Virus record (IMG/VR): IMGVR_UViG_3300037247_001044
Location: 1 to 64,000 of that record
Strand: one strand, 5' to 3'
Length of the DNA stretch: 64,000 nucleotides
From: a virus
Part shown: positions 45,195 through 48,595 of the stretch, in pieces
Numbering within the stretch: position 1 is the first letter of the stretch
Layout of the letters: each line of letters begins with the position of its first letter
Notes under the pieces: model-generated
What the model saw: only the letters and a program-made list of their open reading frames with translations
Told to the model about the DNA's origin: nothing
The model's database searches: none
Position numbers and translations under genes: made by a program

Positions 45195-45321
45195 GAATGC
45201 ATGGTAACGCGGCCAAGAGACGCATCAAGGGAAGAGTGGGCAAGTTGCTATATATGGGAGTTTTGGCCAGATACGGCCAGATTTCTGGGGCAGTTGCCGG
45301 ATGATAGAGGCCAGCGCATGA

Positions 45322-45354
45322 GTAAGCCCGGGCACTTGCGGCACCCGGGCTTAC
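45322..45354. terminator. Perfect 11-bp hairpin between array and portal
   Basis: GTAAGCCCGGG (45322-45332) and CCCGGGCTTAC (45344-45354) are perfect inverted repeats around an 11-nt loop. There is no T run on either side, so it is a candidate terminator, processing site or stability element at the 3' end of the array transcript. Confidence 0.45.
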
Positions 45355-45364
45355 CTTGAAAGTA

Positions 45365-45902
45365 GGGCACTGTAGCAATCGGTCTCAGTGCGAAGTTCGC
45401 CTTGGGCTATGCGGCAATGCCGTTGTCGGTTTCACGTAAGCCGTCGCCTTGTCTAGGGCAACTCTTGACTCGGTTTCATCTTGCCTGTCGCCGTGGGTTG
45501 GGGCAACTCATTCTTCGGTTTCAAACTTATCCTCGCCTTGGATTGGGGCGGTGGAGCTTTCGGTTTCATTTGACCCGTCGCCTTGGGATTGGGCTCGGGG
45601 GTAATCGGTTTCAATTTTCCGCTCGCCTTGGGTTAAGGGGCATCGCGTCAATCGGTTTCACGTTCTGGCTCGCCTTGGGCTGGGGCACCGCTGACTTCGG
45701 TTTCACAAGAGCAGTCGCCTTGGGTTGAGGCAATGCTCGGTTCGGTTTCACGAAGAGTATCGCCTTGGATCGGGACACGGGTGCTCTCGGTTTCACATGT
45801 CGACTCGCCTTGGATTTTGGCATTATTGCAGTCGGTTTCACGGGGTCGGTCGCCTTGGGTTGGGGGCAAGCGGCGACTCGGTTTCACTTGGCCTTTCGCC
45901 AT
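45365..45902 (-). repeat. TIGR-like array, block 1 (12 edge repeats)
   Basis: Edge repeats (plus-strand TCGGTTTCA, minus TGAAACCGA) at 45379, 45426, 45470, 45515, 45560, 45605, 45652, 45697, 45742, 45787, 45832 and 45878. They alternate with loop repeats near TGCCCCAACCCAAGGCGA. Every gap between an edge and a loop is exactly 9 nt and differs in sequence (for example CTTATCC-type, CGTAAGCCG, ACTCTTGAC on the plus strand). Period 44-47 bp, with length change only inside the loop repeat. The left end begins with a partial loop (GGGCA). The right end (a truncated TCGCCAT) almost touches the Tas-like stop at 45909. I read this as a TIGR array giving dual-spacer guide RNAs. Confidence 0.85.
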
Positions 45903-45908
45903 ATCTCA

Positions 45909-46985
45909 TCAACCACCGGTCCACGGTTCCGGTTCAATCCCATCGACTTGAAACACCCATTCCGTCCACAACTCACGCAAGAGCCTTTTCCCCATCAACA
46001 GCATCCCGTGGAGGTGAGGCCGCATCACCATCACACCACGGCCTGAGCATTTTTTGCACCCGTCTCCGCTCTTGGCCGTGCCGGTGCCTTTGCACGTTGT
46101 ACAGTCCGGCGTCCACTCCGGGTCTTTCCGGGCAATCGCTTCGGCTTTCTTCGTAGCATACCGTCGGGCATACGGGCCAGCGTAAATTGCCCCATGCGTC
46201 TCAGTTGCCTTTCGGGCCCCGTTGCCTTTCAGGAGCGATTCGGAAATCACGAACATCACCGACCGGCGCCGTGGACAGTAACCCAGTTCCTCCCACTCGG
46301 CCGCAGACAATCCGCCGTTGTGCTTCTTCCGGCTTCGCCACGTCGAGGGCATGAACGTCTTGCCCTTCGACTCAAACGGGGCGCAGCCCATCCGGCGCCA
46401 CAGCTTCCCGGGGTTGTCGTAGTTCGATAGGTCGCCCACTTCGCCGATGATGATGGCCAGCGATAGCCAGCCGAATCCACGCTGATCGGTTAGTGCCATC
46501 CACTTGGCTACGGGGAGTTGTTTGGACAGCTTTCCCATTTCCCGTTCGTAGGCTTTTTCCGTGGCGTGAAAGCCTTCGATCGAGACGGAGCAGGCTTGAA
46601 TCAGGGGGGCCAGGGCATCTCTGGGCCCGGTTTCAATGGCGCTCTCGCCCTGGACCTCCCTGATAAGTTTCTTCGCATCGCCAAACCACCTGGCACGCTC
46701 GTCTTCCTCCATGCCGGCGTGATACCCGCTCGCCGTGGCCACCGTGGCAGTCAAACGGTTGTCGATCATGATCCGCGACTTTTGCGTGGTGACCCGCTGG
46801 CGTTGGAGTTCACGGATATCGGCAACAAGAGAAGGCACGGGGGTAGTCGGTTTCACCGGATCATTCGCCTTCTTTTTCGGCACTTCCGTTTTCGGTTTCA
46901 GACAGGGGATCGCCTTGTCTTTTGGCACGGCATCCCTCGGTTTCAGTGGGGGTTTCGCCATGGGTGTTTCAGTTACGGTTGCCAT
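45909..46985 (-). CDS. tasA-like: Tas-like protein (IS110 C-terminal/Nop-like core), TasA type
   Basis: 358 residues from the ATG at 46985, chosen for GAAAGG 6 bases upstream; an upstream in-frame ATG at 47063 would run through array repeats. Residues 11-55 are three 15-residue repeats (KPxxxVPKxKA type) encoded by three array units. Residues 55-165 are helical. 'DQRGFGWLSLAIIIGEVGDL' (167-186) and 'NPGKLWRRMGCAP' (191-203) match the Transposase_20 helix-hairpin-helix of IS110 and resemble Nop-type RNP proteins. C295-x2-C298-x11-C310-x2-C313 forms a zinc ribbon. No RuvC acidic set or HNH motif is seen, which fits a nuclease-free TasA. Expected role: bind array RNAs and use their two 9-nt guides on DNA. 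Confidence 0.75.
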   Translation of the reverse strand: MATVTETPMAKPPLKPRDAVPKDKAIPCLKPKTEVPKKKANDPVKPTTPVPSLVADIRELQRQRVTTQKSRIMIDNRLTATVATASGYHAGMEEDERARWFGDAKKLIREVQGESAIETGPRDALAPLIQACSVSIEGFHATEKAYEREMGKLSKQLPVAKWMALTDQRGFGWLSLAIIIGEVGDLSNYDNPGKLWRRMGCAPFESKGKTFMPSTWRSRKKHNGGLSAAEWEELGYCPRRRSVMFVISESLLKGNGARKATETHGAIYAGPYARRYATKKAEAIARKDPEWTPDCTTCKGTGTAKSGDGCKKCSGRGVMVMRPHLHGMLLMGKRLLRELWTEWVFQVDGIEPEPWTGG

Positions 46986-47500
46986 GATGGGCCTTTCGTG
47001 GGGTTGAGGGGGGACAGTAGGTCTCTCGGTTTCACGGGGGGGATCGCCCTGGGTTGGGGGCACAACGGTTTTCGGTTTCAGCGTATTGATCGCCTTGTGT
47101 TAGGGCAGGCTGGGGTTCGGTTTCACCCACGAAATCGCCTTGGTTGGGGGCACCGGAACTTTCGGTTTCGTTCTTGTTGTCGCCTTGAGCAGGGGCATTA
47201 CTATGGTCGGTTTCATTGCTCCAATCGCCATGGTTGAAGGCAATGTCTCATTCGGTTTCAAGTCCGTCCTCGCCTTGGATTGGGGCATCAGCTCGATCGG
47301 TTTCACGGTGGCTCTCGCCTTGGGTCGGGCACGTGTCTAATCGGTTTCACGTCCGTCCTCGCCTTGGGATGGGGCATTGACCGGGTCGGTTTCACTATTC
47401 ATCTCGCCTTTGGTTAGGGCACGGGGGTTTTCGGTTTCATTTCCTTGGTCGCCTTGGATTGGGGCAAAGGCTATCTCGGTTTCACCCACTCAATCGCCCA
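46847..47500 (-). repeat. TIGR-like array, block 2 (14 edge repeats)
   Basis: Edge repeats at 46847, 46892, 46937, 47026, 47072, 47117, 47162, 47207, 47252, 47297, 47341, 47386, 47431 and 47476 (9 nt each; the one at 47162 ends CG rather than CA). The first three lie inside the Tas-like reading frame. Between 46946 and 47025 the array is degenerate and carries the gene's start signals. The loop repeats keep GCC/GGC ends even when the middle changes (for example TCGCCTTCTTTTTCGGCA at 46865). The right edge meets the stop of the 165-residue gene at 47501. Confidence 0.85.
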
Positions 47501-47998
47501 CTATTTCTTCACCTTCTGAAACACCTTCGTCAACTTCGCCAGCGTAAACTTCTGCCGAACGGTCGCCTCGCCCTTTACCGTCTTCGCAAGCTCACGACAT
47601 AGTCGCGTGTTGAACTCGTGACCGGACGCCCGCTCGGATTCCGCGTCGGCCGTGGCCACCAGTTCGTCGCCCGTGAGCATCCCGAGAGTTTTGCCCGCGA
47701 TCAAGTAGGCCATCACGCCTTGAGCAATTCGGCCAGACGCTTCCCCGGCCGTAACCTTTGCCGGTCCACCGTAATCGCCATGGGCGGTTCGCATCTCTAC
47801 GTTGATATGATGCCGGGTGTCGTGGATCAGCTTTGCGATTGCCCGGCGGATCAGCTCGTCTTTCAATGTATCGAACCACTGGACCTTGTTTGCCTTCTTC
47901 AGTACGGCCTCGGTCGCGTCCTCGATACTGTCGGGGTGCTTGTCAACGGCCGCGTCTACTAGCTTTTGCAAACGTTCCATTGCTTTCGGTGATTCCAT
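47501..47998 (-). CDS. Unknown array-associated protein
   Basis: 165 residues from the ATG at 47998. The AAGGAG Shine-Dalgarno is part of a loop repeat of the array, which has changed from ...CCCAAGGCGA to ...CCCAAGGAGA. Mostly helical: a Lys/Asp-rich N-terminus, 'LIRRAIAKLIHDTRHHINVEMR', then 'AGEASGRIAQGVMAYLIAGKTLGML' and a basic C-terminal helix (VRQKFTLAKLTKVFQKVKK). No family or catalytic motif recognised. Because it sits inside the array, it may be a partner of the Tas-like protein or a phage gene that was captured. Confidence 0.65.
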   Translation of the reverse strand: MESPKAMERLQKLVDAAVDKHPDSIEDATEAVLKKANKVQWFDTLKDELIRRAIAKLIHDTRHHINVEMRTAHGDYGGPAKVTAGEASGRIAQGVMAYLIAGKTLGMLTGDELVATADAESERASGHEFNTRLCRELAKTVKGEATVRQKFTLAKLTKVFQKVKK

Positions 47999-48002
47999 TG
48001 AG

Positions 48003-48468
48003 TTCTCCTTGGGTCAGGGGGCACTTCCATTTTCGGTTTCACCCCCGAAATCGCCTTGGGTTAGGGCACCTAGTCATTCGGTTTCACACTGGGCTTCGCC
48101 TTGGATAGGGGCAACCTGACAATCGGTTTCACGCTTGCGTTCGCCTTGGGTTGGGGCACCGGGCTTGTCGGTTTCATATTCGCACTCGCCTAGAGTTAAG
48201 GCAATGTACCACTCGGTTTCACTCTCTTGCTCGCCTTTGGGTTGGGGCAACGCATCACTCGGTTTCATGATGAGCATCGCCTTGAGTGGGTGGCACTTTC
48301 TTTTTCGGTTTCAGCTCGGTGATCGCCTTGGGCTAGGGCACACCCTACCTCGGTTTCAGCGGGTATTTCGCCTTGATTTATGCGGCAGTGGGACACTCGG
48401 TTTCACAGCTATATTCGCCGCGCAAGCCTTCCCTTCGGTTTCCACGAAAGGCCGCCCATAAAAGGGCA
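48003..48468 (-). repeat. TIGR-like array, block 3 (10 edge repeats)
   Basis: Edge repeats at 48033, 48078, 48123, 48168, 48213, 48259, 48305, 48350, 48397 and 48435 (the last is TCGGTTTCC and degenerate). The left end is the loop repeat that serves as Shine-Dalgarno for the gene at 47998. The right end is a decayed loop (48453-48468) that still has the GCCC/GGGC stem. This is the 5' end of the array in transcription direction. The degenerate copies are at this leader end. Confidence 0.85.
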
Positions 48469-48523
48469 AGAATTTCCCGAAGGGAAGGGGTATTGTTCAT
48501 AGAGCCAATCGTGGATAACTGCC

Positions 48524-48552
48524 ACCTTACCACCGGTATTACCGATTGTCAA
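48524..48552 (-). promoter_or_regulatory. Candidate array promoter
   Basis: On the minus strand TTGACA (48552-48547), 17 bases, then TAAGGT (48529-48524). The -35 is perfect, the -10 weak. It points into block 3, about 55 bases before the first repeat. A small TTCCC/GGGAA inverted repeat lies at 48474-48486 between them. The rest of 48,469-48,595 has no gene. Confidence 0.35.
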
Positions 48553-48595
48553 CCCCGAAATTCAAAGTGGCCCATTTCCTACCGAATTCCGATGG

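What the first reader, a model, noticed from the sequence alone, without database searches (positions are those of the whole stretch)
46847..46985. Three array units are translated as the N-terminus of the Tas-like protein
Seen: with the start at 46985 (GAAAGG upstream) the first 55 residues contain three 15-residue repeats (KPxxxVPKxKA) that are exactly three array units read in frame. The same DNA thus looks like both guide array and mRNA. Either the true start is downstream (a GTG at 46838 follows directly after the last unit) or the array entered the gene. If the RNA is processed into guides, the mRNA would be cut, giving possible self-regulation.
Basis: partly seen in the sequence, partly recalled or inferred. 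Interest (0 to 1): 0.78.

Follow-up and report, generated by a model that had tools for sequence, protein, structure and literature searches.

The report
Guide-RNA units hidden inside the effector gene
In this phage, three repeats of a guide-RNA array also form the first codons of the gene for the protein that uses those guides, and a survey of related phages shows this double use of one stretch of DNA is a recurrent, previously unremarked feature of the family.

Summary
Three array units (46959-46838, minus strand) lie in frame in the 5' end of a Nop-domain tas gene, between array 2 and the Tas core. They keep every guide-RNA box position (18/18 each), while the edge linker has changed. The locus is a TIGR-TasA system: the Tas model's best PDB matches are TasR and TasH. 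Its edge repeat is unusually long (18 nt).

It is not a local accident. I fetched 52 homologous phage loci. In 43 non-redundant Tas coding sequences, a strict detector finds 44 complete guide units (20 loci); shuffles preserving protein and codon usage give 1.5, the antisense strand 1. Relaxed: 75 units versus 3.0. Units sit in disordered tails or in one core loop, where this Tas has a probable fourth unit (46649). None lies in the phase that would read a UGA loop as stop. One orthologous in-gene unit shows compensatory changes in 6 of 12 pairs. In 15 homologs the Tas start overlaps the partner gene's stop codon, so translation of the units is well supported there; in this window it is likely but unproven. 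Processing into guides and self-regulation are untested inference. Held papers on TIGR do not mention it.

The parts
48019..48424 (-). TIGR array 3, 9 units (edge TGCC-N9-GGCGA, spacer A 9, loop TGAAACCGA, spacer B 9); its last, truncated edge CCCAAGGAGA doubles as the SD of ORF165
47501..47998 (-). ORF165, conserved partner gene of tas; a partner of this family is found next to tas in most of the non-redundant homologous loci; no convincing Pfam, PHROG or PDB-fold match
47017..47500 (-). TIGR array 2, 11 intergenic units; begins right after the ORF165 stop codon
46960..47016 (-). decayed array unit that carries the SD GAAAGG (46997-46992) and the start codon ATG (46985-46983); keeps array phase (89 nt for two units)
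46910..46959 (-). in-gene unit 1: GGCGA / AACCCCCAC / TGAAACCGA / GGGATGCCG / TGCCAAAAGACAAGGCGA
46865..46914 (-). in-gene unit 2: GGCGA / TCCCCTGTC / TGAAACCGA / AAACGGAAG / TGCCGAAAAAGAAGGCGA
46831..46873 (-). in-gene unit 3: GGCGA / ATGATCCGG / TGAAACCGA / CTACCCCCG / TGCC..., closed by a 7-bp stem AGAAGGC/GCCTTCT (other array units 3-5 bp)
45909..46985 (-). tas (TasA-type, 358 aa): residues 1-46 disordered and array-coded; residues 50-350 coiled coil and Nop-type core
46606..46664 (-). probable further unit inside tas, in a loop between helices (residues about 112-121): GGCGA-N9-TGAAACCGG-N9-TGCC, 17/18 box positions and a 7-bp closing stem; another reading frame than units 1-3
45372..45905 (-). 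TIGR array 1, 12 units, starting right after the tas stop codon
45319..45355 (-). 11-bp perfect hairpin GTAAGCCCGGG...CCCGGGCTTAC after the last truncated edge; possible 3' end of the transcript (no U-run)
   Evidence: read directly

Best explanation
This is a phage-borne TIGR-TasA system, with one Nop-domain protein, a partner protein and arrays of dual-spacer guide units in one apparent transcript. The array runs on into the tas gene, so the DNA at 46838-46959 is dual-use. As RNA it forms three complete guide units; as codons it makes a disordered N-terminal tail. The same holds across the family, where units sit in tails or one surface loop, in reading phases where the box D UGA is not a stop codon. 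Shown: the units, their intact boxes, RNA-level selection inside tas coding sequence, and homolog start sites that include the units. Inferred: that in this phage translation starts at ATG 46985, that these units become working guides, and that Tas-dependent processing then cuts the tas message, so that guide release and Tas synthesis compete (a built-in negative feedback).
For: Fold: best PDB matches of the Tas model are TasR 9mty (E 2e-4, prob 1.0) and TasH entries, then IS621; residues 1-46 are disordered. Window: boxes 18/18 in all three units, edge linker changed at 4 and 5 of 9 positions (other edges mostly 0-3), joint probability of the box codons given their amino acids 10^-6.9. Family: 44 in-CDS units in 20 of 43 loci versus 1.5 expected under synonymous shuffles and 1 antisense; relaxed 75 versus 3.0 and 3; the partner gene shows no comparable excess (2 versus 0.3). 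Phase: 0 of 75 in phase 0, including 0 of 36 loops that do not start with TGA. N-extensions with units: 1963 codons, stops by frame 0/41/86. Tas start overlaps partner stop by 4-17 nt in 15 loci, nearly all with a clear SD. Covariation: 6 of 12 pairs changed on both sides, 0/500 shuffles. L050: five in-frame mid-protein units with period 45 and recoded edges, while most of its intergenic units have periods 47-50 and stop-containing edges.
Against: No RNA or protein data. The repeat has no stop in this frame, so an open frame through three units is expected about half the time. The closest homolog, L008, starts at the core without a tail. The SD at 46985 is modest (AAAGG); GTG 46928 (GAGG, 6 nt) is an alternative that would still translate units 2 and 3. 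Some homologs with a tail show no unit. No guide has a target above control in the held sequences. Processing of in-gene units may be suppressed by ribosomes.
Confidence: 0.7

Rival explanations
1. Tas is translated from a downstream start (GTG 46838), and the three units are only 5' leader, an ordinary array that reaches up to the gene.
For: L008, the closest homolog, starts at the equivalent place. The core begins there and residues 1-46 are disordered. The frame is open partly because of the repeat's make-up.
Against: No SD before GTG 46838 (read directly). The GTG is part of unit 3's own box D. ATG 46985 has GAAAGG at 6 nt. Tails with units and pinned starts are common in homologs. In-gene edge linkers are among the most changed of the array.
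Confidence: 0.22
2. The units in the gene are relics: array DNA was captured into the gene and now serves only as codons for a tail.
For: Edge linkers of units 1-2 have drifted from the array consensus; a decayed unit lies at 46960-47016.
Against: All box positions, including synonymous third positions, are intact while the linker changed (10^-6.9). In homologs the stems inside coding sequence vary by compensatory changes and are nearly absent from synonymous shuffles.
Confidence: 0.12
3. Chance or plain low-complexity repeat (KP/VPK-rich linker) that happens to resemble the array.
For: The tail is Lys/Pro-rich like many linkers.
Against: Three 18/18 box matches at exact 45-nt period in phase with the array. 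Codon shuffles of the tail itself give three such units in 15 of 20000. Other phage genes score 11-13 of 18.
Confidence: 0.01
4. The tail itself is the selected feature (a basic RNA-binding arm); RNA boxes persist because array and tail duplicate by the same slippage.
For: In-gene linkers encode KDK and KKK in place of PQP (read from sequence).
Against: Homolog tails are not obviously basic and differ widely in length and sequence; what they share is the RNA unit.
Confidence: 0.1

Closest known systems
TIGR-TasA with dual-repeat arrays (Faure et al. 2025, PMC12045711)
   Same: Nop-domain protein without nuclease; alternating edge and loop repeats with 9-nt spacers; both repeats start TG and end in the same box (here CGA); tetraloop in the loop repeat; phage-borne
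   Different: Edge repeat 18 nt and unit 45 nt (paper: repeats 8-12 nt, 36-nt tigRNA); units inside the tas coding sequence. The paper places arrays upstream, downstream or between genes.
TIGR stem-loop arrays (Faure et al. 2025)
   Same: Most homologs with detected units have palindromic stems in place of edges; window unit 3 and the mid-gene unit have 7-bp closing stems
   Different: Window edges are constant and mostly close with 3 bp, so the window is intermediate between the two array types
IS110 / IS621 bridge-RNA recombinases
   Same: Nop-type core; IS621 is the next PDB match
   Different: No DEDD domain; arrays of many guides instead of one bridge RNA
Box C/D snoRNAs hosted in genes (own knowledge, including introns of NOP genes)
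   Same: Guide RNA and its Nop protein produced from one transcript
   Different: There the guide lies in an intron; here it lies in translated codons, so each RNA can serve only one use if cut

Membership tests
TIGR-Tas (broad) | Nop-domain Tas protein | tested here: met
   AF2 pTM 0.77; top Foldseek hits TasR 9mty and TasH
[quoted passage not shown]
   35 array-type units, all spacers 9 nt
TIGR-Tas (broad) | Boxes agree between edge and loop repeats | tested here: met
   Both start TG and end CGA
TIGR-Tas (broad) | Array processed into tigRNA bound by Tas | not testable with these tools
   needs small RNA sequencing
TIGR-Tas (broad) | RNA-guided binding of both DNA strands | not testable with these tools
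   no target above control in held sequences
TIGR dual-repeat arrays (narrow description) | Both repeats 8-12 nt, unit about 36 nt | tested here: not met
   Edge 18 nt, unit 45 nt; described as a variant between dual-repeat and stem-loop arrays
TasA subtype | No HNH or RuvC nuclease domain | tested here: met
   No nuclease Pfam hit; residues 1-46 disordered, then coiled coil
IS110 transposase | N-terminal DEDD RuvC-like domain | tested here: not met
   Absent from Pfam matches and from the model, which starts with the coiled coil

The most novel reading that the evidence does not exclude
In a whole clade of TasA systems the tas messenger is itself a guide precursor. Complete guide units are written into translated tails and a surface loop of the effector, so every transcript is either translated or cut into guides. 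Free Tas then limits its own synthesis, and guide repertoire and effector sequence evolve on the same nucleotides.
Probability: 0.45. Interest if true: 0.9.

Novelty: new variant of a known kind. Interest (0 to 1): 0.8.

Why it matters
TIGR biology, guide origin and Tas regulation are open questions in the describing paper. Guide units inside effector coding sequence would give a direct, testable link between guide supply and effector dose. They would show that guides can be carried in translated DNA, and would mean that array searches limited to intergenic DNA miss many guides: by this detector, 82 of 159 units in these loci lie in the Tas coding sequence.

Tried and rejected
Direct homolog searches with the Tas protein and with a two-sequence alignment found nothing in viral or genome contigs. 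An exact repeat pattern found no other viral contig. Terminase relatives (L003-L007, portal mostly about 80% identical) lack the module. Target search against own locus: 31 hits with up to 3 mismatches versus 16-29 in permuted controls, so no target is claimed. Chance and low-complexity explanations were rejected by shuffles. A ParB-like identity of the partner protein was not supported by Pfam or PDB fold search. The alignment that finally fetched homologs (A2) contains synthetic rows, random outside four motifs; it was used only to choose search patterns, and every hit was confirmed by tblastn with the real protein. A simple terminator scan did not find the 45319-45355 hairpin (no U-run).

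Full report
What was checked. The window is 64 kb of a 70.8-kb virus record with terminase, portal and capsid genes. On the minus strand, between terminase and portal, lie array 3, ORF165, array 2, tas and array 1, in that order. The unit is 45 nt: edge TGCC-N9-GGCGA (18), spacer A (9), loop TGAAACCGA (9), spacer B (9). In the loop, G2 and C7 can close an AAAC tetraloop; edge and loop share TG at the start and CGA at the end. This matches the box D/box C layout of TIGR repeats, except for the longer edge (PMC12045711).

The finding. Units beginning at 46959, 46914 and 46869 lie inside the frame of tas. All 18 box positions are intact in each, and spacers are exactly 9 nt. The edges of units 1 and 2 differ from the array consensus at 4 and 5 of the 9 linker positions but at none of the 9 box positions. 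Given the amino acids, the box-matching codons have joint probability 10^-6.9 under the phage's codon usage. Retained boxes next to a changed linker argue against both recent copying and simple decay. Unit 3 is closed by a 7-bp stem, the longest of any array unit in the window.

Where translation starts. ATG 46985 has GAAAGG at 6 nt. GTG 46928 has GAGG at 6 nt and would also translate units 2 and 3. The open frame by itself is weak evidence, since the repeat contains no stop in this frame. The AF2 model shows residues 1-46 as disordered and the core as mostly ordered.

What the protein is. The model's best PDB matches are TIGR-TasR (9mty, E 2e-4) and several TasH entries, then IS621 recombinase. 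No nuclease domain was found, so it is TasA-like. Residues around 290-320 carry an unusual CxxCxG zinc-ribbon-like insertion.

The family survey. Direct searches failed. An alignment masked outside four conserved motifs fetched 52 homologous loci from viral contigs, each confirmed by tblastn. Many carry guide units as stem-loops: stem, C.A box, 9 nt, TG-loop-C.A, 9 nt, TG, stem. A detector for this layout gave strongly strand-biased hits and almost none in shuffled DNA.

Units inside tas. From the SD-supported start to the stop codon, 43 non-redundant tas genes hold 44 units in 20 genes. Synonymous shuffles that keep protein and codon usage give 1.5, and the antisense strand 1. With one box position relaxed the figures are 75, 3.0 and 3. 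The partner gene shows no comparable excess (2 versus 0.3, both near the frame start). L032 holds 10, including three in mid-protein; L036 holds 7 in a 257-residue tail. N-terminal extensions of 30 residues or more hold a unit in 21 of 27 genes, and those under 12 residues in 1 of 11.

Evidence that these units are translated in homologs. In 15 loci the tas start overlaps the partner gene's stop codon by 4-17 nt, mostly with a strong SD, which pins the start upstream of the units. Tails with units comprise 1963 codons with 0 stops in frame and 41 and 86 in the other two frames; the frame was chosen as open, so the pinned starts are the independent part of this argument. No unit lies in phase 0, where a TGA loop would be a stop; this also holds for the 36 loops that do not begin with TGA.

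Evidence for RNA-level selection inside the codons. The unit next to the Tas core is orthologous in nine loci. Its stem is 96% paired, 6 of 12 pairs have changes on both sides, and none of 500 shuffles reach this, while spacers differ. L050 is the clearest parallel to the window: a constant-repeat array with five units in the middle of the protein at exactly 45 nt, all in one phase. Its intergenic units mostly have periods of 47-50 nt and edges such as TGTCTCTGATAATAATGACCA; the coding edges are TGTCATTAAAAAAGACCA. Boxes are kept and the linker is rewritten, as in the window.

A further unit in the window. GGCGA-N9-TGAAACCGG-N9-TGCC at 46649 lies inside tas in another frame, in the loop between two core helices, the region where L032, L043 and L050 carry units. 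Box score plus 7-bp stem has P = 0.001 under synonymous shuffles, and the segment folds with z = -3.3. I call it probable.

How it most likely works. Shown: dual-use sequence. Inferred: the transcript is both message and guide precursor. Since Tas is needed for tigRNA maturation in the described systems, Tas binding and cutting of the 5' end of its own message would lower its synthesis. This feedback is untested. An alternative is that disordered tails merely tolerate units because phage genomes are compact.

Novelty. The describing paper places arrays upstream, downstream or between genes, and neither it nor the one other tigRNA paper found mentions units in the coding sequence. Supplementary files and preprints could not be searched. 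The system is a TIGR-Tas member with a long edge repeat; the coding-sequence location is the new feature. The homologs are related to each other, so counts of loci are not counts of independent events.

Noticed in passing
47501-47998: ORF165 belongs to a conserved partner family next to tas, found by HMM in 37 of the loci, with no convincing Pfam, PHROG or PDB-fold match; an uncharacterised TIGR-TasA accessory protein.
   Followed up: partly
48000-48020: The SD of ORF165 (CCCAAGGAGA) is the truncated last edge repeat of array 3 with one base changed from CCCAAGGCGA.
   Followed up: no
46020-46120: Tas has a CxxCxG...CxxCxG zinc-ribbon-like insertion (residues about 290-320) not seen in the aligned homologs.
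   Followed up: no
L050:4830 and L013:4894-4943: The tas stop codon itself lies in a guide unit (TAA inside loop TGTAACCCA in L050; TGA inside a stem-loop unit in L013).
   Followed up: partly
L015, L016 C-terminal part of tas: 78-nt repeats lie in frame at the C terminus; in L016 they are stem-loop units with long hairpin loops (TGCCGAAAGGCC). My detector misses this loop type, so in-gene counts are lower bounds.
   Followed up: partly
L010:300-420: The partner gene of this locus also appears to end in an in-frame unit with an imperfect long stem.
   Followed up: no
45210-48560: Phages with closely related terminase and portal (L003-L007) lack the whole module; it is a variable insertion between terminase and portal.
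   Followed up: yes
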